DNA of 64,000 nucleotides from positions 124,001-188,000 of the IMG/VR virus record IMGVR_UViG_3300042391_000634; one strand, 5' to 3'. Of this stretch, positions 3,969 to 60,349 are shown piece by piece. Each line of letters opens with the position of its first letter. Position 1 is the first letter of the stretch. The notes below the pieces were generated by a model. That model searched no databases. It worked only from the letters and a program-made list of their open reading frames with translations, and was not told the origin of the DNA. This DNA comes from a virus. Made by a program: the position numbers and the translations under genes.

Positions 3969-3976
3969 TATAAATA
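3969..3976 (-). promoter_or_regulatory. Late-type element TATTTATA
   Basis: Reads CTATTTATA on the minus strand, 4 bases upstream of the start at 3964. Confidence 0.6.
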
Positions 3977-3979
3977 GTT

Positions 3980-5368
3980 TTATTTTTCAGATAATATCTC
4001 AAACTTAATTGAGTCATTATAGTAAATTTCTTCGGTATGTGTCTTAGCTTTAATTTCTAAATAATACTCTCTTGGAATGTAATTAGATGTATTAAAATAG
4101 AATGAATTTTCATTTGTTTTATCTAATAAAGTCCAATCATGTACAACCACATCAGTTGTTCCTTCTTTAATATATAATCTATAATAAACCTCATCAAATA
4201 ATACTGATTTAGGAACATCTAAAGATTTAAAGGTAACAATCACCTTTCTAATATCACCACGTTTAATTTTTTCACCTTGTTTAATACCAAAATATTGTAT
4301 TTTATAACGTTGTAATTCTGTTTGGTTTTCACCAATTGTATATTGTGTTGTAAATGGTTTAGGAACAAATTTTTGTCTTATATCTGAAAGTTCAGCACCA
4401 TCAATTGATAGATTGGTCCAATTATCATAAAAGAATTTTTTACCGTCACATAATATTCCATCAATACCAAAAGTCACTTTATATACACCCTTTTTAACTT
4501 GGGATACTAATATAACATCTTCTAATCCAATTATTGGATTACCATTAGAATCTAAAATATCCACTCTCGGCATATTATCTAAATCATAGAAGTTTGTTCC
4601 TTTAGTAACATATAGATATAAGTTATTAAAAACTCCAGCCGCAAAATTTTGACGATTATCATCTATCCTATCATCAATAAAGGTTTCAACATATGGTTCA
4701 AAGAAAGTTTGTGTATATTTTGTAAAAAATGAAACAGATTGTTCGGTCATAGGTGTTAAATCTTGAAATGGAACTGAAAACGCTAAACCAAATCCTTCAC
4801 AATCACCTAATGTATCATTGTATAACATATAATTAATTTCAGTGGTAATATCAACATCTATATGTTCGTTACCATTATCAAAATGAATAGTTTTTAAAAT
4901 TATTGGATTTTCTGCATATACTCCTGAGGTTGCCCAACTATCTAATGTAGTTCTATCATACCATGTCGATGGTCTTTGGTCAAATGTTTTGTTTCCAGTT
5001 AACGTATCTGCATTAGTGTTAACATAGTCAAATCCAACCCCTTCATCCCAATATTCATCCAATCCAAATAAAATTAAATCAAACGAAGTTGCTCTGTCTC
5101 TACCTGTTGATCTTAGTTGACCTTTAAACCCTTCATCACCAAAAATACAATTAGTTAAACGTAGTCTATGTGTAATTTTATTAAGATTTGCAAGTAACAG
5201 TTCGCCAGTATCAAATTTGTTAATTAAATCACTAAAATCTACTTTAAAAATAAATTTAGAAAATCCACCACCATAATATATCTCAGTTGTTGGGTTTTTA
5301 GCCGTATTAACCTGAGAATTCTTTATAATTGTATTATTCTTCTCAAAATAGGAACGTAAATATGACAT
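3980..5368 (-). CDS. Probable virion structural protein, tail or baseplate
   Basis: 462 residues, no recognised family. The sequence is rich in aromatic and beta-prone residues with few cysteines. It includes a DRTTLDSWATSGVY stretch and a C-terminal half with Ig-like beta-strand character (KIKRGDIRKVIVTFKSLDVP, YYLEIKAKTH). It reads as a secreted or virion surface protein, not an enzyme. It is the first gene of a leftward run with the gp5-like hub protein, so a baseplate or fibre role is the likeliest guess. It has its own late-type element. Nothing identifies it more exactly. Confidence 0.6.
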   Translation of the reverse strand: MSYLRSYFEKNNTIIKNSQVNTAKNPTTEIYYGGGFSKFIFKVDFSDLINKFDTGELLLANLNKITHRLRLTNCIFGDEGFKGQLRSTGRDRATSFDLILFGLDEYWDEGVGFDYVNTNADTLTGNKTFDQRPSTWYDRTTLDSWATSGVYAENPIILKTIHFDNGNEHIDVDITTEINYMLYNDTLGDCEGFGLAFSVPFQDLTPMTEQSVSFFTKYTQTFFEPYVETFIDDRIDDNRQNFAAGVFNNLYLYVTKGTNFYDLDNMPRVDILDSNGNPIIGLEDVILVSQVKKGVYKVTFGIDGILCDGKKFFYDNWTNLSIDGAELSDIRQKFVPKPFTTQYTIGENQTELQRYKIQYFGIKQGEKIKRGDIRKVIVTFKSLDVPKSVLFDEVYYRLYIKEGTTDVVVHDWTLLDKTNENSFYFNTSNYIPREYYLEIKAKTHTEEIYYNDSIKFEILSEK

Positions 5369-5378
5369 CTTTTTTATT

Positions 5379-5386
5379 AATAAATA
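5379..5386 (-). promoter_or_regulatory. Late-type element TATTTATT
   Basis: Reads GATATTTATT on the minus strand, 10 bases upstream of the start at 5368. Confidence 0.55.
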
Positions 5387-5391
5387 TCAAA

Positions 5392-7118: not shown

Positions 7119-9077
7119 TTAATTTTTCATTAATGCATATGATGGTGTTCCAACAGGTCCATTAACACTTTTAAATGGTGTAATGGCTAAGTTATCGGCA
7201 AAACCTTGTACTTGTGCTGACGTTGATAAGACATGATAATTAGGTTCCCCATTTATATCTCCAGTTGGTATTCCCATATTTTGCATTTTTTCAGTTATAT
7301 CCATTGTTGTTTTAACCGCACTAAATCCAGGTAATTTACCGGCTAATAATAATAAAGGATTTGGTATATCTAAACCACCTGAAGCACTAAGTGCTCCACT
7401 AATTGCCGCACCAATTGCGGCGATAATCGCTTCACAACTGTCTAATCCTGTTTCAAGTACTTGTTTTAATAGAGCAATTAATGCTGCTATAACTAAATAA
7501 TATCTTTTTAATTTATCTTTTAATATTTTTCTAATTATTTTCATTAAGAAATTCTTAAGGTCGGCTTTAACTCTTTTCCAAAACTCCCTAATAAATTTCC
7601 AAAATAATTCTTTTATTGTACAAGTGAAGATTTTTTTAAGTTTTTTCATTAAATCTTTAGCATCAACAATTGCATTTTTAGCTCCGGCAACAAATTGTTT
7701 ATATATTATTACAAATGGTAAAAACATTTTTGGTGAAAGAATACTCATTATTAATGCTTTAGGAATATTAAAAATAAAAGATAAGTTAATTGAAATTTGA
7801 AAACTAGGTAAGTCAATTGAAAAATCTGACTGTTCATATGCATCCGATGCTGCCTTATTTAATGCACTATCTATTAATTTTCTTCTATCTTGTTTATCTT
7901 CTAAATAAACAAAATCCTCCATGTGAACTGTATTATATGGAACTTCATAGTTATTACAGTCAGCAAATTTTAACACCTTTCTTCGTCTTGCGTCTTCATC
8001 ATCTAAATCAATACCCTCAACATCATCAAAATCAAAATAAAATTCATCATTTTCTTCGTCATCATTAAATAAATTGGTTGGTGTTGAACCGGTTAATCTA
8101 CCACTATTACAGAATGCAAAAATTTTATTTAACATTCTCTCAAGATTTTGAATTGCCTCATCTAAAGACGGAGCAAAATCTAAAGGATTTTCCATACCAC
8201 TAAACGAACCACCAACACTAACACCATTTTTATCAGCAGACGCATTACATGCTTTTAATGTCATTAACATTGCCTTTTTAACAATCTCATTCAAATCTGG
8301 CATTTCTATATTTGAATAATAATCATTAAAAAAATCACCGACATTTACAAAACCATATTGACCCACCCCATTACCTTGAGTTAAACCTGTGATTTTAAAC
8401 CATTGGTGTTCTGATTGCCATGTAGAAGTAAATAAAGTTTTATTACTCGGTGTGTCATATTGATATTGGATTCCGATTGGTGTTGTTGTTCCTGAATTTA
8501 TAAATGTTTGGTATAAACCATAATTTATTTGAGCTTTATTACCATTTCTTTTTTTAGGGTCTTCATACATTATTTTACCATAGTCACTTTCAGGTGGAAC
8601 TTTAAACATACCTAAAAAATCAATTTCTCTTGGGTAAATGTTAACTTCGTCCATTTCTTGTGTTCCACCCATAACTTGATTTGTACCACAAATACCATCA
8701 TTTGCAAAAAATGCGTTTTTAACACAATCCATAAGGATTTGTTTAGCTGAATTTTTTGTAACATCAACTGAATCCAATACGTGTTGTCTAAGTCTTTGAG
8801 TTGATTGAAATCTATCGGGATCGTTAACAGTTCTACCCGCATCTAAAAATTTATTAACAACTGAAACAACTTCTTCAAATATGTTTTTTTTGTTTTTAGT
8901 TTTCGGTTTTTTGTTTCCTAATTTAGATTTAAGTTGTTCTAATTTGGTATTTAAATTTGGAAGGTTTGGTTGAAACTTTTTTAAAGCATCTTCAGGACTT
9001 ATGTTAAGATTAGCATATTTGTCTTGGTCAACACTTTTTTGTATAATATCAATAGTATTTTTTAGTGATTCAAACAT
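7119..9077 (-). CDS. Large baseplate/virion protein with basic amphipathic and hydrophobic segments
   Basis: 652 residues, no family recognised. Residues 1-75 are helical and lysine-rich; the middle has an acidic stretch (NDDEENDEFYFDFDDVEGI) around residue 345. From about residue 425 to 560 it alternates hydrophobic segments (FNIPKALIMSILSPKMFLPF; YYLVIAALIALLKQ) with strongly basic amphipathic helices (KELFWKFIREFWKRVKADLK), followed by small-residue-rich IIAAIGAAISGALSASGG. This looks able to contact membrane. Its place beside the gp5-like hub suggests a tip or hub component that acts on the host envelope during DNA delivery; this is inference. It overlaps the upstream gene by one base. 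Confidence 0.6.
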   Translation of the reverse strand: MFESLKNTIDIIQKSVDQDKYANLNISPEDALKKFQPNLPNLNTKLEQLKSKLGNKKPKTKNKKNIFEEVVSVVNKFLDAGRTVNDPDRFQSTQRLRQHVLDSVDVTKNSAKQILMDCVKNAFFANDGICGTNQVMGGTQEMDEVNIYPREIDFLGMFKVPPESDYGKIMYEDPKKRNGNKAQINYGLYQTFINSGTTTPIGIQYQYDTPSNKTLFTSTWQSEHQWFKITGLTQGNGVGQYGFVNVGDFFNDYYSNIEMPDLNEIVKKAMLMTLKACNASADKNGVSVGGSFSGMENPLDFAPSLDEAIQNLERMLNKIFAFCNSGRLTGSTPTNLFNDDEENDEFYFDFDDVEGIDLDDEDARRRKVLKFADCNNYEVPYNTVHMEDFVYLEDKQDRRKLIDSALNKAASDAYEQSDFSIDLPSFQISINLSFIFNIPKALIMSILSPKMFLPFVIIYKQFVAGAKNAIVDAKDLMKKLKKIFTCTIKELFWKFIREFWKRVKADLKNFLMKIIRKILKDKLKRYYLVIAALIALLKQVLETGLDSCEAIIAAIGAAISGALSASGGLDIPNPLLLLAGKLPGFSAVKTTMDITEKMQNMGIPTGDINGEPNYHVLSTSAQVQGFADNLAITPFKSVNGPVGTPSYALMKN

Positions 9078-9454
9078 TATAATGAATAGTTACTTGTTTT
9101 ATTATCGTTTCCATCATTAACCAATCTATCTAAAATCTCACGATCTTCATCAGATAAAGTCAATTTACCCATAGAACCTCCACCACCTGAACCACCGGTG
9201 GTTTGTTTAAGTAAAACACTTTGTAATTTAACTAGTGAAATTTTCTTTTCAGTACAATCGTTTAATATCTTCTGTTGTTCTTTAATAACAGGTCCAATTG
9301 TACTCATGTCTTCGGCGTCCTTCATAAAACTCATCATTTTTCTCAAAATGGTGGATGCAGTATTTCTGTTCTCAACAACATCGTTGTAGATTTCCTGCAT
9401 TAAGGCTAACGCTGAATCAACATCTAATGTAATATTGTTTCTTTGTGTTCTCAT
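9077..9454 (-). CDS. Helical protein with Gly-rich linker; possible small terminase (weak)
   Basis: 125 residues: a long helical segment (about residues 10-85), a flexible GGSGGGGS linker, then a short charged helix. The layout, with a central coiled coil and residues KEQQKILND, loosely recalls T4 gp16 (small terminase), but I cannot match sequence motifs. The gene lies between the sigma factor and the 652-residue baseplate protein and is preceded by a late-type element at 3 bases. Equally it may be a tail assembly factor. Confidence 0.5.
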   Translation of the reverse strand: MRTQRNNITLDVDSALALMQEIYNDVVENRNTASTILRKMMSFMKDAEDMSTIGPVIKEQQKILNDCTEKKISLVKLQSVLLKQTTGGSGGGGSMGKLTLSDEDREILDRLVNDGNDNKTSNYSL

Positions 9455-9457
9455 ATC

Positions 9458-9465
9458 AATAAATA
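9458..9465 (-). promoter_or_regulatory. Late-type element TATTTATT
   Basis: Reads CTATTTATT on the minus strand, only 3 bases before the ATG at 9454. Confidence 0.5.
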
Positions 9466-9468: not shown

Positions 9469-10170
9469 TTATTCTAAAAATCCACCCAAAATACCGTCAT
9501 ATAGTTTCTTATAACGTTTAAGAGAGACTCTAATCTCTTTTGTTGATAAGGAGGTCATTTCTCGTAAAGAGAGTAAGATAAGGTTCTTATTGAATTTGTT
9601 ACCATCACCTACTTGAAATATCTTATCAAAATTACTGAAGATTTCAAGTAATGCGTAACCTAACTTTCTCTCGTTATCAGATAGATTTTTTTCTTTTTCA
9701 ATAAAATTTTCTAAATCAATTGTAAGTTTAGTGATAACAGAACTATAATCAATTACGAATTCATCCGTAACATATGAATGGTCTTTACTATCCTCAAAGT
9801 CGGAAGATATATCATCATAAGAAACCTGTCTATTCTGTTCTTTGGTATCTTTCTGTATTGCTCCCATAAGGTAGTTTTTACAGATGGTTCCAAAATATGA
9901 ATACGCTTTAGTATTCTTTGTGTGGTCAAATTTGTTAATCTTAGTTATAAGAAAAGACATTGTATCGGTATGAATTTCTTCAAATTCCATATCTTTTCTA
10001 TAAAGTTTATAACGTCGAATAATTGATTCAACCATTATAATTAGGGGTTCACGTAAATATTCATTGAATATCTTATTTCTTTCTGTTTCGTCACTACTTT
10101 CTAAGTAATTGACTACCGCCTTCTCTTGATCCTCCCCAAAATATATTTTTTGGGTTCTTGGTCTTGGCAT
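9469..10170 (-). CDS. 55: Late transcription sigma factor, gp55-like
   Basis: 233 residues against 185 in T4. Residues 62-110 resemble sigma region 2: FEEIHTDTMSFLITKINKFD, then TKAYSYFGTICKNYLMGAIQ, the motif typical of phage late sigma factors. The C-terminal part (LREMTSLSTKEIRVSLKRYKK) resembles a helix-turn-helix. It should bind host RNA polymerase and recognise late promoters; TATTTAT(A/T) sites in this window are the obvious candidate targets. The start overlaps the stop of the upstream glycosyltransferase gene by one base. T4 gp33 and gp45, its co-activators, are not seen here. Confidence 0.8.
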   Translation of the reverse strand: MPRPRTQKIYFGEDQEKAVVNYLESSDETERNKIFNEYLREPLIIMVESIIRRYKLYRKDMEFEEIHTDTMSFLITKINKFDHTKNTKAYSYFGTICKNYLMGAIQKDTKEQNRQVSYDDISSDFEDSKDHSYVTDEFVIDYSSVITKLTIDLENFIEKEKNLSDNERKLGYALLEIFSNFDKIFQVGDGNKFNKNLILLSLREMTSLSTKEIRVSLKRYKKLYDGILGGFLE

Positions 10171-12904: not shown

Positions 12905-13639
12905 CTAATCATATCTTTGTAAAATATCACCAATAATTGGATTACGAACAATGTCTTGCATTCCAAACTCAAAAATTCCAATTCCTTTAACATCTTGTAA
13001 TCTCATTTTAGCATCGAATAAACCAGATTTAGTTTTATCTCTAAATTTATCTGATTGTTCAAGATCTCCTGAAATAAAGAATTTTGAATTAAATCCAATA
13101 CGAGTTAATAATAACTTAATCTGTGATGGGGTGGCATTTTGAGCTTCTTCAAAAACAAGAATAGTATTATCTACGTTCCAACCTCTCATATAAGCAAGAG
13201 CAGCAACTTCAATGTAACCTTGGTCTTTTAATTCTTCGCGAGCCTCTTTACCAATAATTTTATTTAATAGATAATATGATGGATAAATGTATGGGTCTAA
13301 TTTCTCTTCTAAACCCCCTGGAAGTGACCCTAATTTCTCCTCAGCTTCAACTGCGGGTCTTACTATGATAATCTTCTCATACTTGTTAGAATCGTCGTAT
13401 AATAGGTCTACCGCACGTTTCATTGCTATGTAGGACTTACCTACACCTGCTGGACCGAAACATAATGTAATTTGATTTTCTCCAAGAATGTTCCAATATA
13501 TTTCTTGGTTTTTTGTAAGGAACTTTTCTTTAGGACGTTTAATGATTTGTCTAATCCTATCTTTATGTGATATCTTCTTCTCTTCTACTAATACAGGTGG
13601 TGGTTGGTGAGATGTTTTGATTCTTGTTTTATAAGCCAA
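12905..13639 (-). CDS. phoH: PhoH-like ATPase
   Basis: 244 residues, the single-domain phage form. Walker A is GPAGVGKS at residues 62-69. The Walker B region reads TILVFEEAQNATPSQIKLLL, with Glu where most PhoH proteins have Asp (DEAQN). FISGDLEQSDKF is the conserved sensor stretch. PhoH proteins are NTPases linked to RNA handling; the phage role is unproven. No ATG precedes the conserved domain, and the upstream stop leaves TTG at 13639 as the best start. A TATTTATA element lies 32 bases upstream. Confidence 0.88.
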   Translation of the reverse strand: MAYKTRIKTSHQPPPVLVEEKKISHKDRIRQIIKRPKEKFLTKNQEIYWNILGENQITLCFGPAGVGKSYIAMKRAVDLLYDDSNKYEKIIIVRPAVEAEEKLGSLPGGLEEKLDPYIYPSYYLLNKIIGKEAREELKDQGYIEVAALAYMRGWNVDNTILVFEEAQNATPSQIKLLLTRIGFNSKFFISGDLEQSDKFRDKTKSGLFDAKMRLQDVKGIGIFEFGMQDIVRNPIIGDILQRYD

Positions 13640-13671: not shown

Positions 13672-13679
13672 TATAAATA
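13672..13679 (-). promoter_or_regulatory. Late-type element TATTTATA
   Basis: Reads GATATTTATA on the minus strand, 32 bases before the presumed TTG start of phoH and just after the dut stop. Confidence 0.45.
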
Positions 13680-16066: not shown

Positions 16067-16636
16067 TTACTTTGCTTTATTTACTCCTGTGATTTTACCT
16101 TTGAATATCGAATCTCCTACCTTTAATACTAAATTTTCATTGATTGAAGATGTTGTGGATGCAGTAAGGATTTGATTTAATTTTTCATCCATTACTTTAC
16201 GAACTGTATTCTCAATAAGAACGGCCATTGCATTCATATCAATATTGTTATTAACAATAGTTTGTTTTGGTTGTGCCGATGGTCTTGTTGCCACACCTTC
16301 TTGTTCCATTAAACGTTTTGCACCTTTAACAAAATCCATATCTAAAGTATCATTTAAAGAAATTTGTTGAATTGGATTTTCCATCATTGCTTTTTTAATT
16401 GCGTCAGGTAACTTTGAATTTTGAATTTTATCAACACTCATATTAGCACCTACAGGTCTTGTATTAGGTTGTTGTGGGGTCTGCATTTCCATTAATTCTG
16501 ATGGGTCGGATCTTAACATTTCACTATTAACATGACCTCTTTCATAATTTCCACCATCCACTTTGTTCATAATTTTTTTAGCTTGAACTAATTTTTTCAT
16601 TAAATCGTTAGACGATATTGTTCCTTGTTGTGCCAT
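16067..16636 (-). CDS. Unknown protein, possible virion-associated
   Basis: 189 residues. The N-terminal half is low in hydrophobic residues, with many Gln, Pro and Met (MEMQTPQQPNTRPVG). A predicted helix (NAMAVLIENTVRKVMDEKLN, about 133-152) is followed by a small beta-rich end, NLVLKVGDSIFKGKITGVNK, that could be an SH3-like or binding module. The late-type element 3 bases upstream argues for late expression with structural genes. No family recognised. Confidence 0.55.
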   Translation of the reverse strand: MAQQGTISSNDLMKKLVQAKKIMNKVDGGNYERGHVNSEMLRSDPSELMEMQTPQQPNTRPVGANMSVDKIQNSKLPDAIKKAMMENPIQQISLNDTLDMDFVKGAKRLMEQEGVATRPSAQPKQTIVNNNIDMNAMAVLIENTVRKVMDEKLNQILTASTTSSINENLVLKVGDSIFKGKITGVNKAK

Positions 16637-16639: not shown

Positions 16640-16647
16640 AATAAATA
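16640..16647 (-). promoter_or_regulatory. Late-type element TATTTATT
   Basis: Reads ATATTTATT on the minus strand, 3 bases before the ATG at 16636. Confidence 0.5.
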
Positions 16648-18097: not shown

Positions 18098-18589
18098 TTA
18101 TAACATTAATTTTTTTATTCTTTCAAGTTGTTCAAATAACCCCGTTAATTTTATTGATGATATTGAATTTTTTTCTGAATTAGAATTAAATTTAAATGAA
18201 GGTAACCAACTTGATTTTTTTGTATGTTTCTTTAAGAAACTATTTTTTCTTTCTCCTGTGGTGCTTGAAATATCATCAGATTGTTTTCTACCTTCTTTTC
18301 TATTTTGTATTAAATCTCTTTCTCCTTGGAGATGTTGTTTAGACCAATTGTCCATTAAATCACCACCAGCCAAGTCATACCTAATTTTATCAGCAACTTT
18401 ATCCATACTTTGTATGTCATGAATAATACGTTTAAGTTGACCATATGTTACTTTTTTATCGGTTAAGAGTTTTTTAGCTCTCATTACCCCATGCATATTT
18501 TGACCGTTAAGACCTGTAACCGTGTGGTTGATCTTATCTAAAATGTTCTGTGGTAAATCAAAGTCCCTATTTTTTAACTCTTTATTCAT
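18098..18589 (-). CDS. Conserved phage protein of unknown function, basic
   Basis: 163 residues. The segment YGQLKRIIHDIQSMDKVADK followed by IRYDLAGGDLMDNW looks like a conserved helical domain (about residues 54-87). The following 50 residues are polar and basic, and the C-terminus GLFEQLERIKKLML forms a short amphipathic helix like the ends of the gp22 scaffold and the WYL-like protein. That tail might dock to the capsid or to a common partner. It overlaps the upstream gene by 8 bases and lies one base from the repeat gene. Confidence 0.6.
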   Translation of the reverse strand: MNKELKNRDFDLPQNILDKINHTVTGLNGQNMHGVMRAKKLLTDKKVTYGQLKRIIHDIQSMDKVADKIRYDLAGGDLMDNWSKQHLQGERDLIQNRKEGRKQSDDISSTTGERKNSFLKKHTKKSSWLPSFKFNSNSEKNSISSIKLTGLFEQLERIKKLML

Positions 18590-19337
18590 TATCGTCTTTA
18601 AGTCCTTTTAAAATATGGTCGGGTTTAAGACCATAAGTTTTCATACTATTTTTAAGTGATTTTATTTGTTTTGCAACTATTGGATTGATTTCAATTTCTT
18701 CAACCTCTTCTTCTTTAGATAATACATCGTTGTCTTTTCCTTTTTGTTTTAAAAGATTGTCAATGTATTCCTCCATGAATTTTTTAGGATTTTCAACCAA
18801 TCTTACTTTGTCTTCAGGTAAACTTGGGTCAAAACCTAATTGTTTTGCTCTTTCATCTCGTTCAACAGGATCTTCAATACCTAAATTTTCAAATTCACCT
18901 TCAGCATCCTCATAATCAACATTGTCAGAATGTAATAATTTATCAGCACCCAATACTTTACTCATATCAGATTCACCCCAATATCTTCTAAAACCCATAC
19001 CTAATTTTGGTGATATTGATGATTGTCCCGCACCTGTTAATGCCACTTCATCACTTGTTGAATTTGATGATATACCTTTAGTATTAAAATCTCCTGGTTT
19101 TTTACTCTTTGCAAAATTACCGGCAGCATCTACAATTTCATCAACCTCTTCTTCTTTTTCTACTTTATTAGGGATTTTATCATAATCTGTATCATCGGAG
19201 AATTCTTTAGCCCATTTTGACCATTTCTTCTTTTCTTTCTTGGGTTTACCCTTTTCATTCGCCTTAGCGTAGAAAAATCTTTGTTGTGCTTTTGAAGCAA
19301 ATTTCTCTTCAATTACCTGTTTTATAAAATTATTCAT
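18582..19337 (-). CDS. Candidate capsid-targeted protein, DUF3008-like N-terminus
   Basis: 251 residues, strongly charged. The N-terminus MNNFIKQVIEE|KFASKAQQRF has a short amphipathic helix ending in I-E-E, a prohead-protease-like site, then ASKAQQRFFYAKANEKGK, which recalls the short basic motif of DUF3008 proteins. The middle contains KLGMGFRRYWGESDMSKVLG and a very acidic stretch. It starts a leftward operon of five genes (19337-16670 with overlaps or 1-base gaps) and is preceded by a late-type element. Function unknown. Confidence 0.62.
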   Translation of the reverse strand: MNNFIKQVIEEKFASKAQQRFFYAKANEKGKPKKEKKKWSKWAKEFSDDTDYDKIPNKVEKEEEVDEIVDAAGNFAKSKKPGDFNTKGISSNSTSDEVALTGAGQSSISPKLGMGFRRYWGESDMSKVLGADKLLHSDNVDYEDAEGEFENLGIEDPVERDERAKQLGFDPSLPEDKVRLVENPKKFMEEYIDNLLKQKGKDNDVLSKEEEVEEIEINPIVAKQIKSLKNSMKTYGLKPDHILKGLKDDNE

Positions 19338-19352: not shown

Positions 19353-19360
19353 TATAAATA
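19353..19360 (-). promoter_or_regulatory. Late-type element TATTTATA (divergent pair, left)
   Basis: Reads GATATTTATA on the minus strand, 15 bases upstream of the start at 19337. Its mirror partner lies at 19378 on the other strand. Confidence 0.62.
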
Positions 19361-19377: not shown

Positions 19378-19385
19378 TATTTATA
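19378..19385 (+). promoter_or_regulatory. Late-type element TATTTATA (divergent pair, right)
   Basis: GATATTTATA ends 5 bases before the ATG at 19391 and lies inside the longer alternative frame from 19370, which favours the later start. Confidence 0.62.
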
Positions 19386-20987: not shown

Positions 20988-20995
20988 TATTTATA
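20988..20995 (+). promoter_or_regulatory. Late-type element TATTTATA
   Basis: GTATTTATA ends 7 bases before the ATG at 21003. Confidence 0.6.
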
Positions 20996-21002: not shown

Positions 21003-21872
21003 ATGGCAACAACAAGACCCTTCGCATACAACACAGGATCCACCATAGATGGAACAACACAAATTGGAAACATCGCAATAGGTGTTTCAGATCAAGATTA
21101 TTCACAAAATCCAGGTGGGGTTAAATGGTGGATGGGACCTGACGAAGATTTGGGTTATGTTATTGCATACGAGGTACCAACAGGAGATCAACCAACACAA
21201 GTTGAGGTGGATGCGTACCTTAATTTTTGGAGATCAACAAGTTTAACGGATCAATCTTTAGTTGATTTATTAAACTCAATACCACCTACAAATGGTTTAC
21301 CATTATTTACAAATAAAACAGACGCATTAGATTGGTTAAATACTAATGGATATTTTACATCATATTCAAGTTTTGGTAGTTCAGGATTTCAATGGATGAC
21401 TATTAACTCAATTACCGATACAACCGCATCAGGTGTAGGTCAAAACGGCATCACAGTTACAATTACACAAGACAATGGAGGTATGGAAACGGAGAATGGT
21501 ATGTACAGCCCAACGACATTTCCAGAACAATACGGGGTTCCACTAAATGGTAATCAAATCCGAAACACTAAAGATGGTGTATTTACGGCAACATTTAGTC
21601 AACCTGTTTTAAATCCACTAATTGCATTTGCTAGTGTAGGTAATCCAAATTTATCAGTTCCAGTTCAATCAACTTTACCGTTTACTCCAATTTGGGAGCA
21701 GTCAACAACTTATCAAAACGCATCAGGTCCAACTCAATACACTCAATTCACAGGACAAGAAGGATTCAATATTATTCGAATAGATGGTACTGTAAGTAGC
21801 GTATCTTTTTTATATACAGTTGAGGAATATTATTGCACAGTTTGTTTTGGATTTGTAGATCAGAACTCGTAA
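21003..21872 (+). CDS. Probable tail fibre or surface structural protein
   Basis: 289 residues. The N-terminal part (PFAYNTGSTIDGTTQIGNIA ... GGVKWWMGPDEDLGYVIAYE) is a domain I have seen repeated in virion proteins of Bacteroidota phages. The C-terminal half (GVFTATFSQPVLNPLIAFAS and FNIIRIDGTVSSVSFLYTVE) is beta-rich and lectin-like. It sits alone between two late-type elements, next to the LamG-like protein and the BppU-like protein, consistent with a receptor-binding or decoration role. Confidence 0.58.
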   Translation: MATTRPFAYNTGSTIDGTTQIGNIAIGVSDQDYSQNPGGVKWWMGPDEDLGYVIAYEVPTGDQPTQVEVDAYLNFWRSTSLTDQSLVDLLNSIPPTNGLPLFTNKTDALDWLNTNGYFTSYSSFGSSGFQWMTINSITDTTASGVGQNGITVTITQDNGGMETENGMYSPTTFPEQYGVPLNGNQIRNTKDGVFTATFSQPVLNPLIAFASVGNPNLSVPVQSTLPFTPIWEQSTTYQNASGPTQYTQFTGQEGFNIIRIDGTVSSVSFLYTVEEYYCTVCFGFVDQNS

Positions 21873-21878: not shown

Positions 21879-21886
21879 TATTTATA
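21879..21886 (+). promoter_or_regulatory. Late-type element TATTTATA
   Basis: GTATTTATA ends 4 bases before the ATG at 21891. Confidence 0.6.
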
Positions 21887-21890: not shown

Positions 21891-22262
21891 ATGGAATTTC
21901 ACATAAGACAAGGGGCAACTGACCCAATATTAAAAATGAGAATGATTGACGACGGTAAAAACGATAAGTCATCATTTAATGAAATGTTAGCCACAGGTTC
22001 AACAATTACATTTGAAATGTCCGATGTAACAACTGGGGAGCCTATGGTTGTAGGTGGGGAATGTTTATTAACCAATAGGGTAAAGAAATATGATTATACA
22101 ACAGATGAGAATTATATTACATATAGATTCACAGAAGAACAAACATCACAAGTAGGAAGATTTGAGGGTAAGATTACGGTTCAATTTAAAGACACTAATC
22201 AAAACCCAACAACCAAACTTATTCTACCAATTAAAGAAAAACTTTACATTAATATTTTTTAA
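21891..22262 (+). CDS. BppU N-terminal-domain-like baseplate protein
   Basis: 123 residues. FHIRQGATDPILKMRMIDDG near the start, GSTITFEMSDVTTGEPMV in the middle and SQVGRFEGKITVQFKDTNQN near the end follow the order of the BppU_N Ig-like domain that anchors receptor-binding proteins to baseplates in other phages. Only the anchor domain is present; the receptor-binding part would be another chain, perhaps one of the two fibre-like proteins upstream. Confidence 0.58.
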   Translation: MEFHIRQGATDPILKMRMIDDGKNDKSSFNEMLATGSTITFEMSDVTTGEPMVVGGECLLTNRVKKYDYTTDENYITYRFTEEQTSQVGRFEGKITVQFKDTNQNPTTKLILPIKEKLYINIF

Positions 22263-25682: not shown

Positions 25683-26794
25683 ATAACAATAATAGATGAA
25701 GGCATTGCTCTAAATTTAAGTGCCTTATTAAGATTCTCCGCCTCACCCGCTTTTCTTTCAAGAAGTTTGTCGGGGCGGAGTCTTTCTAATCTAGCCATAA
25801 GTTCCTCAACCAATTTAGATTTTTCATCTTTACCTTCCGTAATTAATGATGAGTAATCTAATTTAACTGAACTATCTGGAACTTGTAAGTCCCCACTAAA
25901 TTTACCCCAAATACGACCTAAACCTTCCTTAGCATAAGCAATCAAATACTTTCTAATCCAGTTTTGTGCGGGTTTATTTAATTGGTCCCATGTTAATTCT
26001 TCAGTCATAACATCAGATGGTAATTTAATTACATCTTTGTTATTTTTTAAACAAGTGTCTCTATCCATAGTATCATAATACCAATACCAAACGTTGTAAT
26101 TTTTTTGTTGTATAGAACCAAAATCAAATTTACCACCAGGTACATTGTGTAAGTGAACTAATTTTTTACCTTCAGGACCCGCAGTAATTCTATAAGTTAA
26201 ATCGCCACCAATTAATCTATTTTTCATAGACCTATCTTGCATCCTCAATAATAAGTCAAATGCTGGCATCATAAAGTAAGAACCCGCGTTACCAGCTTGA
26301 GCAAATCCACCCGCACCACCAAATCCCATACCACCAAGACCACCAAATCCAGCCATAAACGGATCAACAAATGAATCATTTAGTTCGGCACGTGTAAACC
26401 ACAAAAGTTCGTTTATTTCACGACCGGCAGGGATTTCATATGTTTGAGTTCCACCTGTAAGTTCAAAAAAATCCTTTTTCAATTCACTTGTTCCTCCAGC
26501 CTGTAAACCTACAATTTTAGAATATGAGTGTGTATATTGAGTTTCGTAATCTAAACTTCTTGTTGTAAATGCTCTTGATAATGATTGTGTATCCACATCT
26601 AAACCAGCTAAGGCCGACCATTGAGATTCGATTAACCAATCACTAACATATTGTTCATATTCAGATAAAGATAACTCCATAAAGGTATCCATTTGTTCTT
26701 CCGTAAGTTCAATACCACGAACTGGCATACCTAAAAGATGAAATACTTGGGTATATAATTTATCTTTCTCCGCTTGTGAAATAATTTGAGACAT
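25679..26794 (-). CDS. 13: Neck protein, gp13-like
   Basis: 371 residues. Near the N-terminus LLGMPVRGIELTEEQMDTFM followed by ELSLSEYEQYVSD matches the start of phage gp13-type neck proteins, and AQNWIRKYLIAYAKEGLGRI followed by WGKFSGDLQVP (about 275-305) is the second conserved block. It closes the filled head and joins it to the tail. The middle has a Gly-rich loop (GGLGGMGFGGAGGF, about 150-163) that looks like a local insertion. It is isolated on the minus strand between polymerase and a small plus-strand gene. Confidence 0.65.
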   Translation of the reverse strand: MSQIISQAEKDKLYTQVFHLLGMPVRGIELTEEQMDTFMELSLSEYEQYVSDWLIESQWSALAGLDVDTQSLSRAFTTRSLDYETQYTHSYSKIVGLQAGGTSELKKDFFELTGGTQTYEIPAGREINELLWFTRAELNDSFVDPFMAGFGGLGGMGFGGAGGFAQAGNAGSYFMMPAFDLLLRMQDRSMKNRLIGGDLTYRITAGPEGKKLVHLHNVPGGKFDFGSIQQKNYNVWYWYYDTMDRDTCLKNNKDVIKLPSDVMTEELTWDQLNKPAQNWIRKYLIAYAKEGLGRIWGKFSGDLQVPDSSVKLDYSSLITEGKDEKSKLVEELMARLERLRPDKLLERKAGEAENLNKALKFRAMPSSIIVI

Positions 26795-26809: not shown

Positions 26810-26817
26810 TATAAATA
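26810..26817 (-). promoter_or_regulatory. Late-type element TATTTATA
   Basis: Reads GATATTTATA on the minus strand, 15 bases upstream of the start at 26794. Confidence 0.6.
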
Positions 26818-28809: not shown

Positions 28810-28817
28810 TATTTATT
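28810..28817 (+). promoter_or_regulatory. Late-type element TATTTATT
   Basis: CTATTTATT ends 5 bases before the ATG at 28823. Confidence 0.58.
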
Positions 28818-30823: not shown

Positions 30824-30831
30824 TATTTATT
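30824..30831 (+). promoter_or_regulatory. Late-type element TATTTATT of the sheath gene
   Basis: GATATTTATT lies 38 bases before the ATG at 30870, the same distance as for the tube gene. Confidence 0.6.
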
Positions 30832-34042: not shown

Positions 34043-34050
34043 TATTTATA
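34043..34050 (+). promoter_or_regulatory. Late-type element TATTTATA of the tube gene
   Basis: TATATTTATA ends 38 bases before the ATG at 34089. Confidence 0.6.
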
Positions 34051-35563: not shown

Positions 35564-35571
35564 TATTTATA
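35564..35571 (+). promoter_or_regulatory. Late-type element TATTTATA
   Basis: GTATTTATA begins one base after the preceding stop and ends 3 bases before the ATG at 35575. Confidence 0.55.
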
Positions 35572-37486: not shown

Positions 37487-37494
37487 TATTTATA
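37487..37494 (+). promoter_or_regulatory. Late-type element TATTTATA
   Basis: CTATTTATA lies 14 bases before the ATG at 37509. Confidence 0.58.
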
Positions 37495-40500: not shown

Positions 40501-42245
40501 AACCATCATCAAATGCTTCGGTAAAAAACACACTTACACCAACAGGGGTAATACCAACAAATAAAACTAAACCACCGATAGATTTAATGAAAAGAATTAT
40601 AATGAAAACATTGTCGGAAGAATATTACTTTAAGAAATTAGAGGAAACTTCACCAATGATTTATAGTTCTTTGAAAGAAAAATTAAGATACTTTCATCCG
40701 GGTTTTCACTCAATGACACCAGAGGGGTTAAACTCACGTTTAACATTTTTACAACAATGTTTAAGACCTGGAAATACAATACCTGTTAAAGGTATATCTG
40801 ACAATTCAGATATTAATGCAAGAAATACAACATTCGGACCACCACCAATCTGTGTGTTAAGAGTTGGAGATTTTTATAATTCAAAAGTTATTATAAAAGA
40901 CCTCAATATACAATTTGAGGAAAATACATGGGATTTAAATCCTGAAGGTATTGGCATCCAACCAATGATAGCCAGTGTTACAATGCAAATAAGTTTCTTG
41001 GGAGGACATGGTTTAGAAAAACCGATTGAGAGATTACAAAACGCATTATCATCTAATTTCTTTGCAAATACGGAAATGTATGATGAAAGAGCGGAATCAA
41101 CCAATACAAAAATAGGTGGTAAAGATGCTAACGAATTTACAAAAGAGTTTATACAAAGTTTAAATGACACACTTATACCACCAACAGGTTTAAAAGATAG
41201 TAACGGTAAAGGTTCGGTTGAAGGTCAATATATTGGAACTTTAGAACCTATGCAACCATCAATTAATTATACAACTGTAGTTGATGAACTTTTTAAAAGG
41301 ACAAATACATATTTTACATCATACGAGAGTTTCTATAATAATGTATTAACATCCAATGGTTCAATACTAACAAATTTAATTATTAATAAAGACTATAGAA
41401 AAATTAATACTTACGACGTATTCACTATAACAAGTACCCCAATTAGTTTATTTGGATTATATAAAGATAAAACATTACCAACCTATATTAATGACCTATC
41501 TACAAAATTAAATACATATTTAAAAGATTCAAATCCTTTATATTTGATTGATACGTTTGACTTAAATAATATTATACCACAAAAATACCAAACAGACATT
41601 AATCAAATATTAAGTAATAATATAATTAATATAACATCAACAAAATTAAATGAAATTAATGAGTTAAAAAGTATTAAAGAGTTTGAAACAAAAAGAAATG
41701 AATTAATTGAATCGTTAGACAAATTAAACTATATAACTCAAAATAGTTATGATGTTAAAACTGAAAAAAATAAATCTACCAAATTAACATTAGGAACTGG
41801 AGATTTTAATCCAATTGAATTTTATTCAAATTATAGTACGAATATTGATTATATTAATAGTAACACAACAAAAATGTATGAAAAGTTAGACACAAGTTTA
41901 AATTTTGAAAATATAGTAATAACACATGACGTTGTAAAAAATATATTAAATGCAATATTAAAGAATAGTGTCGATGATATTATTGTAGGAGTTGAAATTC
42001 CATTACCACAAGAAGACTATTCACTTTCACCTAAAATTAAAGACGGTATTACTAAATGGTTTACTAAAATAAAAGAGGAAAAATTAAAGTTTGGAAAACC
42101 ACCAATTCGTAAAAATAGTAAACCAGTTGTTTATACGATGCCACCATTAGACGTTAGTGAATCTGAAATTCCAACAACCGATGAAATAAAATGGTTATTT
42201 GGTCAAAAACATAATGTTACAGATAAATTAAATTATTATAGATAA
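37509..42245 (+). CDS. Giant baseplate protein with OmpA-like domain
   Basis: 1578 residues. The N-terminal 700 residues end in a block (WEPNLFLGRPEPIYTYQNSE, RNGTISFKVVVDHPSILNLL, about 615-655) like tail proteins that join tube and baseplate. From about residue 740, KYILHFPNNLPGVKN followed by a helix and, at 855-890, GDVVILVSSTASGAGDGSDE, NYKLSVRRSHSIFQTVI has the pattern of an OmpA-like peptidoglycan-binding domain. Residues about 1060-1170 (MTPEGLNSRLTFLQQCLRPG ... PPPICVLRVGDFYNSKVII ... WDLNPEGIGIQPMIASVTMQ) form another structural block. It shares a TAATG junction with the gp53-like gene. A hub role is inferred. Confidence 0.6.
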   Translation: MPKYLDFDATKDFRDAMLKRTLNPVYGKSPSPKTFTSSNYTVQSLGDSENLLLPQVDGNRKNDLSLPQKFNIFKPTEFLVKDTIKDIPRRANLNLYPYFTQTNNTLIGIMLTKNYDTESELFKFAANNIRTNPQGPVLARISQNLNTAINAKNKIGEALGGNTNTLINIIRGKQPLIEGNESITVSSSLLGKGIDFLQTVAGTQLPFSTIPGDYLTNPRNPINVRPTDVSTGTKVWQDLTGVLGSIVGIQRRPLPSRKPSDILIEHMGSSSKNRLFDLLSYSKYAPDYTTTARSQMSTQLGKIPSQIAQGVKSLLGMEAPNSGAYIGDDRENNVKNATTDLFSGRPTRSSYYLTLMYDKVSAELFHNTKSIIENGPIGGNLTWISKNRTDKSDITGLGKTKSTDFKFRTDSILETTQQILDSKPQNGGDALSHIGRVLDQTSKYFKDGDTLISRGSGVRYMDNSGRDIGVEYARVWTKDRPYLTYGNTMPLYKETTKKPYYKGGETPFRRTGIRRFDSSVMTNTWNLNMAPMSDGTSSKDFPGSSNIVRNPNGKGFYAKKYMLSIENLAWAASTLPGYTVNDLPYSERGPNGGRVMWFPPYDLKVSEQNSAKWEPNLFLGRPEPIYTYQNSERNGTISFKVVVDHPSILNLLIREHFKSVNETDTDAYINAFFAGAKDIDFYSLIRQYSNLDSDDITMIQNYLGNNGNPNDIQRYKNAVSSQVVNNPGGTSTADANKENVTEKYILHFPNNLPGVKNSSISNKSYDAITIDKTNSITTLTTTLQSLVTGTDPIDDSDRISVFGKKTLESFESGTTINNIVTDLTTLLTNNETSFTSFNTTLETLKTNLENKNIQGDVVILVSSTASGAGDGSDENYKLSVRRSHSIFQTVINKIKKTDPPAENKWDFKELEGIKFAAGLEVYPYEKSYSFTNLGYEGDKSIIIRTTNYGSNANIDKIECGKIKYTGKTGNDLSKYTPLSYGCRSSVVSVEYDKIKKTEPSSNASVKNTLTPTGVIPTNKTKPPIDLMKRIIMKTLSEEYYFKKLEETSPMIYSSLKEKLRYFHPGFHSMTPEGLNSRLTFLQQCLRPGNTIPVKGISDNSDINARNTTFGPPPICVLRVGDFYNSKVIIKDLNIQFEENTWDLNPEGIGIQPMIASVTMQISFLGGHGLEKPIERLQNALSSNFFANTEMYDERAESTNTKIGGKDANEFTKEFIQSLNDTLIPPTGLKDSNGKGSVEGQYIGTLEPMQPSINYTTVVDELFKRTNTYFTSYESFYNNVLTSNGSILTNLIINKDYRKINTYDVFTITSTPISLFGLYKDKTLPTYINDLSTKLNTYLKDSNPLYLIDTFDLNNIIPQKYQTDINQILSNNIINITSTKLNEINELKSIKEFETKRNELIESLDKLNYITQNSYDVKTEKNKSTKLTLGTGDFNPIEFYSNYSTNIDYINSNTTKMYEKLDTSLNFENIVITHDVVKNILNAILKNSVDDIIVGVEIPLPQEDYSLSPKIKDGITKWFTKIKEEKLKFGKPPIRKNSKPVVYTMPPLDVSESEIPTTDEIKWLFGQKHNVTDKLNYYR

Positions 42246-48425: not shown

Positions 48426-48433
48426 TATTTATA
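48426..48433 (+). promoter_or_regulatory. Late-type element TATTTATA
   Basis: GATATTTATA lies 17 bases before the ATG at 48451 and within a longer in-frame reading from 48394, favouring the later start. Confidence 0.58.
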
Positions 48434-48450: not shown

Positions 48451-48654
48451 ATGGAAAATAATAGATTAAATGATACCATGGATCAGTTTTTAAACCCTAA
48501 AAAAGTTAAAAACGTATCTAATGACGGTATGGAAAGAGAAGAATGTGATATAGTAACAGGAGAATGTTACACAATCAGAGAAAAAGACGGAATCGTTGAA
48601 AGAATAAATAAAAAATACGTTACAAACGACGGTAGACAATTATTACAAGATTAA
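48451..48654 (+). CDS. Small conserved phage protein with Cys pair
   Basis: 67 residues. MDQFLNPKKVKNV, EECDIVTGECYTIREKDGIV and NKKYVTNDGRQLL form a compact beta-rich sequence that I have seen in hypothetical proteins of related phages. The C-x6-C pair may bind metal or form a disulfide. An ATG at 48394 would give 86 residues but overlaps the previous gene and the late-type element, so 48451 is preferred. It precedes the head-type gene at 48659 by four bases. Confidence 0.6.
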   Translation: MENNRLNDTMDQFLNPKKVKNVSNDGMEREECDIVTGECYTIREKDGIVERINKKYVTNDGRQLLQD

Positions 48655-57638: not shown

Positions 57639-57644
57639 GTTGGA

Positions 57645-57652
57645 TATTTATA
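57645..57652 (+). promoter_or_regulatory. Late-type element TATTTATA
   Basis: GATATTTATA lies 11 bases before the ATG at 57664, just after the nrdA stop. Confidence 0.5.
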
Positions 57653-57663
57653 AAAAAAAGAAA

Positions 57664-57927
57664 ATGGTAGAGGTAAAAAAATTTGGGGCTTCTTGGTGTG
57701 GCCCGTGTAGAGCATTAGCACCTATATTAACTGAAATAAAGTCACAATTTAATAATGTTTTATTTACAGAACATGATGTTGATGATGATTATGAAGAGGC
57801 AACAAAATACGAAATAAGGTCCGTCCCAACAGTCATCTTAATAAAAGATGGTGTGGAGGTCGATAGAATAATTGGTTTAGCCGCAAAATCCAAATATGTT
57901 GGATTGATAAACGAACAGACAAATTAG
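57664..57927 (+). CDS. trx: Thioredoxin / glutaredoxin-like reductant
   Basis: 87 residues, short for the family. FGASWCGPCRALAP carries the WCGPC active site at residues 11-15, and YEIRSVPTVILIKDG the cis-proline. Likely reduces the CVSCEA tail of NrdA. A GTG at 57628 in the same frame would add 12 basic residues but lies within nrdA and before the upstream element, so ATG 57664 is preferred. A terminator follows. Confidence 0.9.
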   Translation: MVEVKKFGASWCGPCRALAPILTEIKSQFNNVLFTEHDVDDDYEEATKYEIRSVPTVILIKDGVEVDRIIGLAAKSKYVGLINEQTN

Positions 57928-57937
57928 TAAAATTTAG

Positions 57938-57966: not shown

Positions 57967-58002
57967 TTAAAACTATATACATAACCATTTTGTGTTTGTT
58001 TA

Positions 58003-58010
58003 TATTTATT
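58003..58010 (+). promoter_or_regulatory. Late-type element TATTTATT
   Basis: TATATTTATT ends 4 bases before the ATG at 58015. Confidence 0.58.
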
Positions 58011-58014
58011 GAAT

Positions 58015-58467
58015 ATGGCAGTAACATACGGTATTGATTATCCATTTAGAGACAGTTCCAAGGGAGATTATCTGAACATGACAGAAATCCCTGAGAAAGA
58101 GATTAGGGCCAACCTAATACACCTTATTTTAACAAGAAAAGGTAGTAGGTATTATTTACCTGATTTTGGAACTAGAATGTATGAATTTATTTTTGAACAG
58201 AATGATTTTGTTACACATAATTTAATTGAAGAAGAAGTAAGGGAGGGTGTAAAAAAATACATACCAAATTTAGAGATTAATTCAATATCAATAATGTCAG
58301 CTGAAGATGACCCTGATGAACGTAGAAGTTCCAATCAAGAAGAAGATGAAAGACTATATAGAGTTTCTGAGGAATCAACAAAACCATATACTGCGGTGGT
58401 TAAAATAGATTATACCGTAAATAATGGATCATTTTCCACATCTGACTTTATAATTTTAAACATATAA
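58015..58467 (+). CDS. 25: Baseplate wedge protein, gp25-like
   Basis: 150 residues against 132 in T4. IRANLIHLILTRKGSRYYLP, DFGTRMYEFIFEQNDFVTHN is the gp25/GPW signature, and the following helix carries IEEEVREGVKKYIP. This protein nucleates sheath attachment at the baseplate. It has an extra acidic loop (SAEDDPDERRSSNQEEDERL) near residue 100. ATG at 58015 is chosen over TTG at 58009, which touches the late-type element. One base separates it from the gp6-like gene. Confidence 0.88.
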   Translation: MAVTYGIDYPFRDSSKGDYLNMTEIPEKEIRANLIHLILTRKGSRYYLPDFGTRMYEFIFEQNDFVTHNLIEEEVREGVKKYIPNLEINSISIMSAEDDPDERRSSNQEEDERLYRVSEESTKPYTAVVKIDYTVNNGSFSTSDFIILNI

Positions 58468-58468
58468 A

Positions 58469-60301
58469 ATGAGCAAACAAATATCATACGCAACAAGAGA
58501 TTTCCAAGGATTAAGAAATGAATTGGTAACACTAACTAAAGATTATTATCCTGACTTAGTTAAGAATTTTAACGATGCATCGGTCTATTCGGTGTTATTG
58601 GATATCAATGCTGCGGTTGCGGATAATCTACATTTTCATATAGATAGAGTTTGGCAGGAAACTATGTTGGATTTTGCTCAACAAAGACAATCATTATATC
58701 ATATTGCTAAAACATATGGATTAAAAATACCTGGAGTTAGACCTTCCGTTGCGTTATGTGATTTTTCAATAACAGTACCGGTGAGAGGTGATAAAGAAGA
58801 TACGAGATATTTGGGTATATTAAAAGGTGGGGCTCAGGTTTCTGGCGGAGGTCAAATATTTGAAACAATAGAGGATATAGATTTCTCAATTCCATTTAAT
58901 AAGAAGGGAGAACCCAATAGATTAAAAATACCGAATTTTGATGCAAATAACAGATTAATATCATACACAATCACAAAGAGAGAAGCGGTTGTAAATGGTG
59001 TTACTAAAATATACAGAAGGGTTATAAATCAAATTGACCAAAAACCATTTTTAAAATTATACTTACCCGAACAAAACGTTTTAGGTGTTACATCGGTTAT
59101 ACATAAAGACGGAACCAATTTTGCTAGTAATCCAACATCAAATGAATTTAATAGTGCAACAAATAAGTGGTATGAGGTAAAATCGTTGATGCAAGATAAA
59201 GTTTTTATTCCTGACCCAAGTGCAGTATCTGATACTAATAACTTTACGGCGGGAACTTTCTTAGGTGTTAATAATAAATTTGTAACAGAATATACACCTG
59301 AAAATTATTTTTCATTAACTTTTGGTTCTGGAACGGTTAATCCACTTGATAATTTGGATGATTACATGACAGGAAAATTAAAAGTTAATTTGGCTAGTTA
59401 CCTTAATAACCTATCGTTAGGTTCTACACCAAAACTTAATACCACCATATTCGTGAAATATCGTGTTGGTGGGGGTAAAGACAGTAATTTAGGGGTTAAT
59501 GTTATCACAAGTGTAGATGATGTTGAATTTACAGTTTCAGGTCCCGTATCGACAATAAATTCACAAGTTGTTCAATCTTTAAGAGTTCTTAATATAACAC
59601 CTGCTGTAGGTGGTGCAGACCAACCAACAACTGAAGAGGTTCGTAATATGGTTTCGTATAATTTTGCAGCACAAAACAGAGCCGTTACATTAAATGACTA
59701 TAAATCATTAATTGAAACTATGCCATCCACATATGGTGCTCCGGCTAAAGTTAACGTTATGGAGGAAGACAATAAGGTTAGAATTAAATTATTATCATAT
59801 GATGATAAGGGTAATTTAACGGATACCGTTTCTAACACATTAAAATCCAATATATTATCATATCTTTCTGAATATAAAATGATTAATGACTACATTGACA
59901 TTGTAAGTGGTGAGGTTATTGATTTAGGTTTAGAGATTGATTTAAACATTGATAAAAACGCTAATCAAACCGATATAACCCAAACTGTTATTGATGATGT
60001 AATAAGTTATTTTGACTATTCTAAACGTAAAATGGGAGATCCATTATTCATTGGAGCGTTAAACAAAATAATCGGTAGTGTAACTGGAGTTATTAATGTA
60101 ATTGAAATTAGAGCTTACAATAAAATAGGTGGAGAATATTCATCCGCTCAGGTTTCTCAAACATACAAGGATAACACAACTAAAGAAATTGCACAATCAG
60201 ATAGTATTATATTCATGAAATCAAATCAAATATTTCAAATCAGGTTCCCAAATAAAGACATCAAGGTTAGAGTTAAAACTTTAGGGACGACTACCTTTTA
60301 A
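58469..60301 (+). CDS. 6: Baseplate wedge protein, gp6-like (baseplate J family)
   Basis: 610 residues against 660 in T4. FNDASVYSVLLDINAAVADN, LHFHIDRVWQETMLDFAQQR (about 34-73) is the conserved start. VRNMVSYNFAAQNRAVTLND, YKSLIETMPSTYGAPAKVNV (about 392-431) is the baseplate-J core. Gp6 dimers form the ring that holds the wedges together and rearranges on contraction. Follows gp25 directly, the common T4-like order. Confidence 0.88.
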   Translation: MSKQISYATRDFQGLRNELVTLTKDYYPDLVKNFNDASVYSVLLDINAAVADNLHFHIDRVWQETMLDFAQQRQSLYHIAKTYGLKIPGVRPSVALCDFSITVPVRGDKEDTRYLGILKGGAQVSGGGQIFETIEDIDFSIPFNKKGEPNRLKIPNFDANNRLISYTITKREAVVNGVTKIYRRVINQIDQKPFLKLYLPEQNVLGVTSVIHKDGTNFASNPTSNEFNSATNKWYEVKSLMQDKVFIPDPSAVSDTNNFTAGTFLGVNNKFVTEYTPENYFSLTFGSGTVNPLDNLDDYMTGKLKVNLASYLNNLSLGSTPKLNTTIFVKYRVGGGKDSNLGVNVITSVDDVEFTVSGPVSTINSQVVQSLRVLNITPAVGGADQPTTEEVRNMVSYNFAAQNRAVTLNDYKSLIETMPSTYGAPAKVNVMEEDNKVRIKLLSYDDKGNLTDTVSNTLKSNILSYLSEYKMINDYIDIVSGEVIDLGLEIDLNIDKNANQTDITQTVIDDVISYFDYSKRKMGDPLFIGALNKIIGSVTGVINVIEIRAYNKIGGEYSSAQVSQTYKDNTTKEIAQSDSIIFMKSNQIFQIRFPNKDIKVRVKTLGTTTF

Positions 60302-60341
60302 AATGTTTTTTCGTTATAATAATAGAAAATCACATAGTTTC

Positions 60342-60349
60342 TATTTATT
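60342..60349 (+). promoter_or_regulatory. Late-type element TATTTATT
   Basis: CTATTTATT ends 6 bases before the ATG at 60356. Confidence 0.58.

What the first reader, a model, noticed from the sequence alone, without database searches (positions are those of the whole stretch)
3969..60349. Start-proximal element TATTTAT(A/T) at 19 genes: candidate late promoter giving leaderless or short-leader mRNAs
Seen: TATTTATA or TATTTATT on the coding strand 3-38 bases before 19 start codons on both strands (+: 19378, 20988, 21879, 28810, 30824, 34043, 35564, 37487, 48426, 57645, 58003, 60342; -: 3969, 5379, 9458, 13672, 16640, 19353, 26810), often preceded by GA, G or C. A rough estimate from base composition gives about one by chance. 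It is the reverse complement of the T4 late box TATAAATA. Polymerase, gp32, uvsX, gp41, nrdA/B and the SNF2 helicase lack it. In twelve cases the spacer is 10 bases or less; with T4-like spacing transcription would begin at or near the ATG. A gp55-like sigma factor is encoded here. Inference: late promoter; alternatively a translation-start element.
Basis: partly seen in the sequence, partly recalled or inferred. Interest (0 to 1): 0.72.

Follow-up and report, generated by a model that had tools for sequence, protein, structure and literature searches.

The report
Late promoter with leaderless phage messages
A large group of giant lake phages marks the genes it needs late in infection with a short DNA signal (TATTTAT), and at about four in ten of those genes the signal sits so close to the start codon that the messenger RNA should begin at the start codon itself, which would be unusual and suits hosts that lack the standard ribosome-binding signal.

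Summary
All 19 sites exist. Genome-wide (335,630 bp phage record, 375 called genes), TATTTATA is the strongest 8-mer before start codons: 61 genes against 10.5 expected. The core is TATTTAT. It is conserved in place at orthologous late genes of uncultured relatives (tail tube 42 of 42 distinct upstream regions, most others 90-100%) and almost absent from orthologues of unboxed genes. It also occurs in the cultured Flavobacterium phage immuto and in Microcystis phage Mel-JY01. Best explanation: the -10-type late promoter of a T4-like, gp55-dependent system. In Mel-JY01, whose genes often carry Shine-Dalgarno (SD)-like sequences, the same box lies mostly 40-50 nt upstream. In the Bacteroidota-type phages, which lack SD, the distance is bimodal: box starts at -11 to -15 (105 of 279 genes, four genomes), almost none at -16/-17, then -18 and beyond. 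T4's late box spans -13 to -6, so the first class should be leaderless and the second have short A-rich leaders. Published metatranscriptomes of apparent sister phages fit the predicted transcription units, but no 5' end has been mapped. Recognition by this gp55 is inferred; a gp45 clamp was not found. Verdict: observation right, interpretation largely right; a new variant of a known kind.

The parts
3969..3976 (-). late box before gene 3536-3964, spacer 4 nt (leaderless class)
   Evidence: boxed in 26 of 29 distinct orthologous upstream regions
5379..5386 (-). late box before gene 3980-5368, spacer 10 nt
   Evidence: 44 of 44
9458..9465 (-). late box before gene 9077-9454, spacer 3 nt (leaderless class), directly behind the sigma gene
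   Evidence: 47 of 48
13672..13679 (-). late box before the PhoH-like gene 12905-13639 (TTG start, 32-nt spacer)
   Evidence: 35 of 36
16640..16647 (-). late box before gene 16067-16636, spacer 3 nt (leaderless class)
   Evidence: only 18 of 37; degenerate versions at the same place in some others
19353..19360 (-). late box before gene 18582-19337 (divergent pair)
   Evidence: 29 of 29
19378..19385 (+). late box before the gene whose likely ATG is at 19391, spacer 5 nt (leaderless class, divergent pair)
   Evidence: 16 of 21, the rest TATTTATC/G at the same place
20988..20995 (+). late box before gene 21003-21872, spacer 7 nt
   Evidence: no orthologue found among the fetched loci
21879..21886 (+). 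late box before gene 21891-22262, spacer 4 nt (leaderless class)
   Evidence: no orthologue found
26810..26817 (-). late box before gene 25679-26794 (head-tail adaptor-like)
   Evidence: 16 of 18, the other two TATTTATC
28810..28817 (+). late box before gene 28823-29335, spacer 5 nt (leaderless class)
   Evidence: 23 of 23
30824..30831 (+). late box before the tail sheath gene 30870-33767, box start at -46 (leadered)
   Evidence: 29 of 29
34043..34050 (+). late box before the tail tube gene 34089-34577, box start at -46 (leadered)
   Evidence: 42 of 42
35564..35571 (+). late box before gene 35575-37446, spacer 3 nt (leaderless class)
   Evidence: 2 of 2
37487..37494 (+). late box before gene 37509-42245, box start at -22 (leadered)
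   Evidence: 29 of 32
48426..48433 (+). late box before gene 48451-48654, box start at -25
   Evidence: no orthologue found
57645..57652 (+). late box before gene 57664-57927, box start at -19
   Evidence: no orthologue found
58003..58010 (+). late box before gene 58015-58467, spacer 4 nt (leaderless class), after a terminator
   Evidence: 29 of 29
60342..60349 (+). late box before gene 60356-63748, spacer 6 nt (leaderless class)
   Evidence: 28 of 28
9469..10170 (-). gp55-like late sigma factor, 233 aa
   Evidence: phrog_234; profile best PDB match T4 gp55 7d7c_F E 2.9e-4; conserved C-terminal GFL(E/D)
971..2746 (+). major capsid protein gene without its own box, 22 nt behind the boxed gene that starts at genome 123686
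   Evidence: phrog_138 E 3e-65

Best explanation
TATTTAT (usually followed by A or T, preceded by A, G or C) is the -10-type late promoter of a T4-like jumbo phage infecting Bacteroidota. The phage's gp55-like sigma factor directs host RNA polymerase to this single box, without a -35 element, and transcription starts about 11-15 nt downstream of the first T. In roughly 40% of boxed genes this start falls on, or within a few bases of, the A of ATG, giving leaderless mRNA; in the rest it gives short A-rich leaders without a Shine-Dalgarno sequence. Shown: motif, position, orientation, conservation, gene class, two spacing classes. Inferred: transcription start, recognition by gp55, leaderless translation.
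For: Top de novo 8-mer upstream of starts; sense orientation and fixed position; at divergent starts and after intrinsic terminators; rarely together with host-type TAnnTTTG promoters (p 0.004); conserved at orthologous late genes and not elsewhere; at structural but not replication genes in immuto; known boxed genes here are terminase, prohead protease, sheath, tube, tail fibres, endolysin; same box at leadered distance with SD-like sequences in Mel-JY01; bimodal spacing with gap that matches T4 box positions -13 to -6 (PMC1524935); gp55-like sigma; published transcription units in apparent sister phages (PMC9723584).
Against: No mapped 5' ends. The box differs from all T4-type late boxes named in the review read (TATAAATA and close variants, PMC2988020). 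No gp45 clamp detected, gp33 not searched. Gene starts rest on a simple caller. Gene 16067 keeps the strict box in only half of its relatives. phrog_234 also rings in 7 of 14 control genomes, so that hit alone is weak.
Confidence: 0.87

Rival explanations
1. The box is a translation-start element of the mRNA, read by the ribosome or an initiation factor.
For: It lies very close to many start codons, and these hosts lack Shine-Dalgarno signals.
Against: Distance varies from -11 to about -50 and drifts up to 11 nt among orthologues; Mel-JY01 has the box plus separate SD-like sequences; Flavobacterium ribosomes favour A at -3, -6, -12, -13 (PMC6847099), whereas the close class is T-rich there; several boxes directly follow a terminator; genes that abut their upstream neighbour almost never have it (2 of 166).
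Confidence: 0.03
2. The box is a promoter, but read by a host alternative sigma factor or another phage factor, not by the gp55-like protein.
For: Direct recognition was not tested; the box is not the T4 sequence; a gp45 clamp was not found.
Against: The gp55-like sigma travels with the box in immuto, Mel-JY01 and the jumbo phages, across very different hosts as stated in the records.
Confidence: 0.1
3. The box is the late promoter, but the close class makes mRNAs with short leaders of 1-5 nt rather than true 5'-AUG messages.
For: Start choice may vary by a base or two; offsets spread over -11 to -15.
Against: The nearly empty -16/-17 positions and the sharp limit at -11 suggest that leaders of a few nt are avoided.
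Confidence: 0.15
4. The sites are T4-type TATAAATA promoters on the opposite strand, firing away from the genes.
For: TATTTATA is the reverse complement of TATAAATA.
Against: Boxes sit in sense orientation at tandem genes with nothing to drive on the other strand; copies upstream of starts are in the TATTTATA sense while TATAAATA is at background.
Confidence: 0.01

Closest known systems
T4-type late promoters (TATAAATA, gp55/gp33/gp45)
   Same: Single 8-bp AT box near late structural genes, no -35 element, gp55-like sigma encoded; box position relative to the presumed start fits -13 to -6.
   Different: Box is TATTTAT(A/T), with TT instead of AA in the middle; many boxes 3-7 nt before ATG (T4 in the stretch tested: box start -22 to -36, with SD); no clamp detected.
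Late genes of Flavobacterium phage vB_FspM_immuto
   Same: TATTTATA at late genes, related gp55, sheath and tube genes.
   Different: Mostly leadered (4 of 33 boxed genes in the leaderless class) and a second, different start-proximal motif.
bS21-encoding Bacteroidetes myoviruses (PMC9723584)
   Same: bS21 on the reverse strand in the terminase-portal-protease-capsid cluster; genome size; predicted hosts.
   Different: That study does not mention promoters, sigma factors or leaderless mRNAs in its text.
Bacteroidota housekeeping promoters (TAnnTTTG)
   Same: Found at other genes of this phage in comparable positions.
   Different: Different sequence, rarely at the same genes as the box.

Membership tests
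T4-type gp55-dependent late transcription | phage-encoded gp55-like sigma | tested here: met
   distant, E 2.9e-4 to T4 gp55 over the sigma-2-like region
T4-type gp55-dependent late transcription | box TATAAATA | tested here: not met
   TATTTAT core instead; TATAAATA at background
T4-type gp55-dependent late transcription | no conserved -35 element | tested here: met
   box-aligned upstream regions show no further strong block
T4-type gp55-dependent late transcription | late structural genes, not replication genes | tested here: met
T4-type gp55-dependent late transcription | activation by the sliding clamp gp45 via C-terminal epitopes | tested here: inconclusive
   no clamp found, but the sigma ends in a conserved hydrophobic/acidic GFL(E/D)
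T4-type gp55-dependent late transcription | co-activator gp33 | not tested
   not searched
Leaderless mRNA | mRNA 5' end at the start codon | not testable with these tools
   inferred from box-to-ATG distance and the T4 box position (PMC1524935)
bS21-encoding Bacteroidetes myoviruses | bS21 gene on the reverse strand within the TerL, portal, protease, MCP cluster | tested here: met
   PF01165 at genome 122185-122331, minus strand, E 5e-12; neighbours (the portal assignment rests on position)

The most novel reading that the evidence does not exclude
The phage changes the ribosome as well as the promoter: late, leaderless 5'-AUG mRNAs are preferentially translated by ribosomes carrying the phage's own bS21, whose gene is itself under a late box in the leaderless position here. 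Leader class would then be a second layer of late gene control.
Probability: 0.12. Interest if true: 0.85.

Novelty: new variant of a known kind. Interest (0 to 1): 0.62.

Why it matters
It gives the late promoter of an abundant but mostly uncultured group of lake phages, so late genes and transcription units can be read off the sequence. It also suggests that one promoter system adjusts its distance to the start codon to the host's way of starting translation (SD leaders in Mel-JY01, leaderless or A-rich leaders in Bacteroidota phages), and predicts a large set of leaderless mRNAs in hosts where these are rare (5.5% of mapped mRNAs in Flavobacterium psychrophilum, PMC9723704). That makes leaderless translation by SD-blind ribosomes, and the role of phage bS21, directly testable.

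Tried and rejected
Chance from AT richness: rejected by Markov and anagram controls and by equal sense/antisense counts inside genes. Reverse-oriented T4 box: rejected. Translation element: disfavoured (see rivals). Test of A at -3 and -6 in leaderless against leadered genes: direction as expected but not significant, so not used as support. AlphaFold model of the gp55-like protein (30 close homologues): low confidence (mean pLDDT 61.8); the Foldseek list is dominated by sigma factors but nothing is significant. Sliding clamp searches: nothing. Literature: no paper in the held library joins TATTTATA, phage and late promoter, and the searches for leaderless late transcription in Bacteroidota phages found none; most subscription papers are not covered. 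The start-codon preference of leaderless genes cannot be judged because my caller prefers ATG. A box at the bS21 gene is present in four of seven bS21 loci of this clade looked at (own, G001, G003, G008) and not in strict form in G002 and G005 (G007 gave no separate row), so it is not universal.

Full report
WHAT WAS CHECKED. The window is bases 124001-188000 of a 335,630-bp virus record. All 19 sites exist. I fetched the record in stretches, called 375 genes with a simple codon-model caller and asked which words are over-represented in the 45 nt before starts, without assuming the motif. TATTTATA comes first among 8-mers (61 genes, 10.5 expected). It lies almost only at -11 to -50 on the coding strand; TATAAATA, TTATTTAT, TATTATTA and other AT words do not behave this way. 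Among its 56 anagrams the mean is 9.1 genes against 63. Inside genes, sense and antisense copies are equal (40 and 40), so those are background.

PROMOTER OR TRANSLATION SIGNAL. Boxes are frequent at divergent genes (15-16 of 38, depending on the start assigned to one gene) and at tandem genes with an intergenic gap (10-99 nt: 44 of 104), and rare where genes abut (2 of 166). Several follow an intrinsic terminator so closely that a new transcript must start in the few bases before the ATG, for example the terminase gene: hairpin, T run, then GTATTTATACATATATG. Other genes after terminators carry TAnnTTTG, the Bacteroidota -7 element, in the same place, and box and TAnnTTTG rarely coincide (Fisher p 0.004). 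This looks like two promoter classes: host-type (presumably early) and phage-type late.

CONSERVATION. I fetched 240 IMG/VR loci around relatives of the tail tube, the gp55-like sigma and the 60356-63748 gene and compared upstream regions of orthologues. Thirteen boxed genes with enough orthologues keep the box: tail tube 42 of 42, sheath 29 of 29, 3980 gene 44 of 44, 9077 gene 47 of 48, 58015 gene 29 of 29, 60356 gene 28 of 28, 28823 gene 23 of 23, and others somewhat less; the PhoH-like gene adds 35 of 36. Several of the exceptions have TATTTATC or TATTTATG at the same place, so the core is TATTTAT. Orthologues of about 25 unboxed genes have it in 0 to 2 cases each. The distance drifts for leadered genes (tube -40 to -51) but stays within a few bases for the close class.

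SPACING. Box start to ATG is bimodal. Pooling four jumbo genomes (279 genes): 105 at -11 to -15, one at -16/-17, then a second broad peak from -18, and only three closer than -11. Neighbouring positions average nine, so the gap has Poisson P 3e-7. T4 late boxes span -13 to -6 (PMC1524935). Transferred here, the close class starts transcription at the ATG; the far class has leaders of about 5-40 nt, A-rich and without SD (SD-like words in 2-5% of genes). Codons 2-11 of most close-class genes vary most at third positions among relatives, so the assigned start codons are probably right (gene 16067 is an exception).

OTHER PHAGES. The Flavobacterium phage immuto has the box at sheath, tube, hub, tape measure, terminase and portal, but at none of 27 replication or metabolism genes. 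Microcystis phage Mel-JY01, whose genes often carry SD-like sequences (37% of genes, 59% of boxed genes), has the same box mostly 40-50 nt upstream with the SD-like sequence between box and ATG. So the box travels with the phage lineage, while the distance fits the host's translation. As a control, 50 kb of T4 run through the same pipeline returns TATAAATA at -22 to -36.

THE FACTOR. The gene at 9469-10170 (minus strand) is a gp55-like sigma: phrog_234 and, with a profile of 30 homologues, T4 gp55 as best PDB match (E 2.9e-4). Relatives among public phages are only immuto, Mel-JY01 and one uncultured 484-kb phage; the first two were examined and have the box. I could not find a gp45 clamp, so clamp activation is open. 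That this protein reads the box is inference.

INDEPENDENT EXPRESSION EVIDENCE. The genome encodes ribosomal protein bS21 on the reverse strand inside the head cluster, the hallmark of the bS21 phages of Chen et al. (PMC9723584), predicted to infect Bacteroidetes. Their metatranscriptomes show that the head region is not one operon and that the major capsid gene may be transcribed with its upstream gene. Here terminase, the presumed portal, bS21, protease and the gene before the capsid gene each have a box, and the capsid gene (phrog_138) has none and follows 22 nt behind the boxed gene. That study's text does not mention promoters or leaderless mRNAs.

VERDICT. This is a new variant of T4-type late promoters with a strong prediction of leaderless late mRNAs. 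Mapped 5' ends are the missing proof.

Noticed in passing
genome 122155-122346, minus strand (L015:2155-2346), upstream of the window: A bS21 ribosomal protein gene on the reverse strand in the head cluster; it has a TATTTATT box at -12 and a host-type TAnnTTTG at -25. bS21 genes are also in G001, G002, G003, G005, G007, G008 and Mel-JY01, not detected in immuto.
   Followed up: partly
window 3536-3964 and many genes outside, e.g. genome 15550, 18951, 44070, 45693, 46935: Many leaderless-class proteins start MK(L/I/V)..., e.g. MKLIDIIFES, MKLLDIIFEN, MKIIITEEQL: 13 of 37 against 2 of 39 leadered and 22 of 299 unboxed genes. A shared N-terminal signal, perhaps like the capsid-targeting peptides of T4 internal proteins, is possible.
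   Followed up: partly
NC_055915.1 (immuto), L106-L109: A second start-proximal motif, roughly TATTTAGGTATCAATAATT, is even more enriched than the late box in immuto (16 genes against 0.3 expected); possibly its early or middle promoter.
   Followed up: no
window 12905-13639, minus strand: The PhoH-like gene appears to start with TTG, conserved in 22 of 36 distinct relatives, with a conserved 32-nt leader after the late box.
   Followed up: partly
genome 322996, 325190, 87664, 5395: Some host-type TAnnTTTG elements also lie 4-5 nt before ATG, so presumably early genes may be leaderless as well.
   Followed up: no
PP395634.1 (Microcystis phage Mel-JY01): A phage with a stated cyanobacterial host shares the gp55-like sigma, sheath, tail tube and a head-cluster bS21 gene with this lineage and uses the same late box.
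   Followed up: partly
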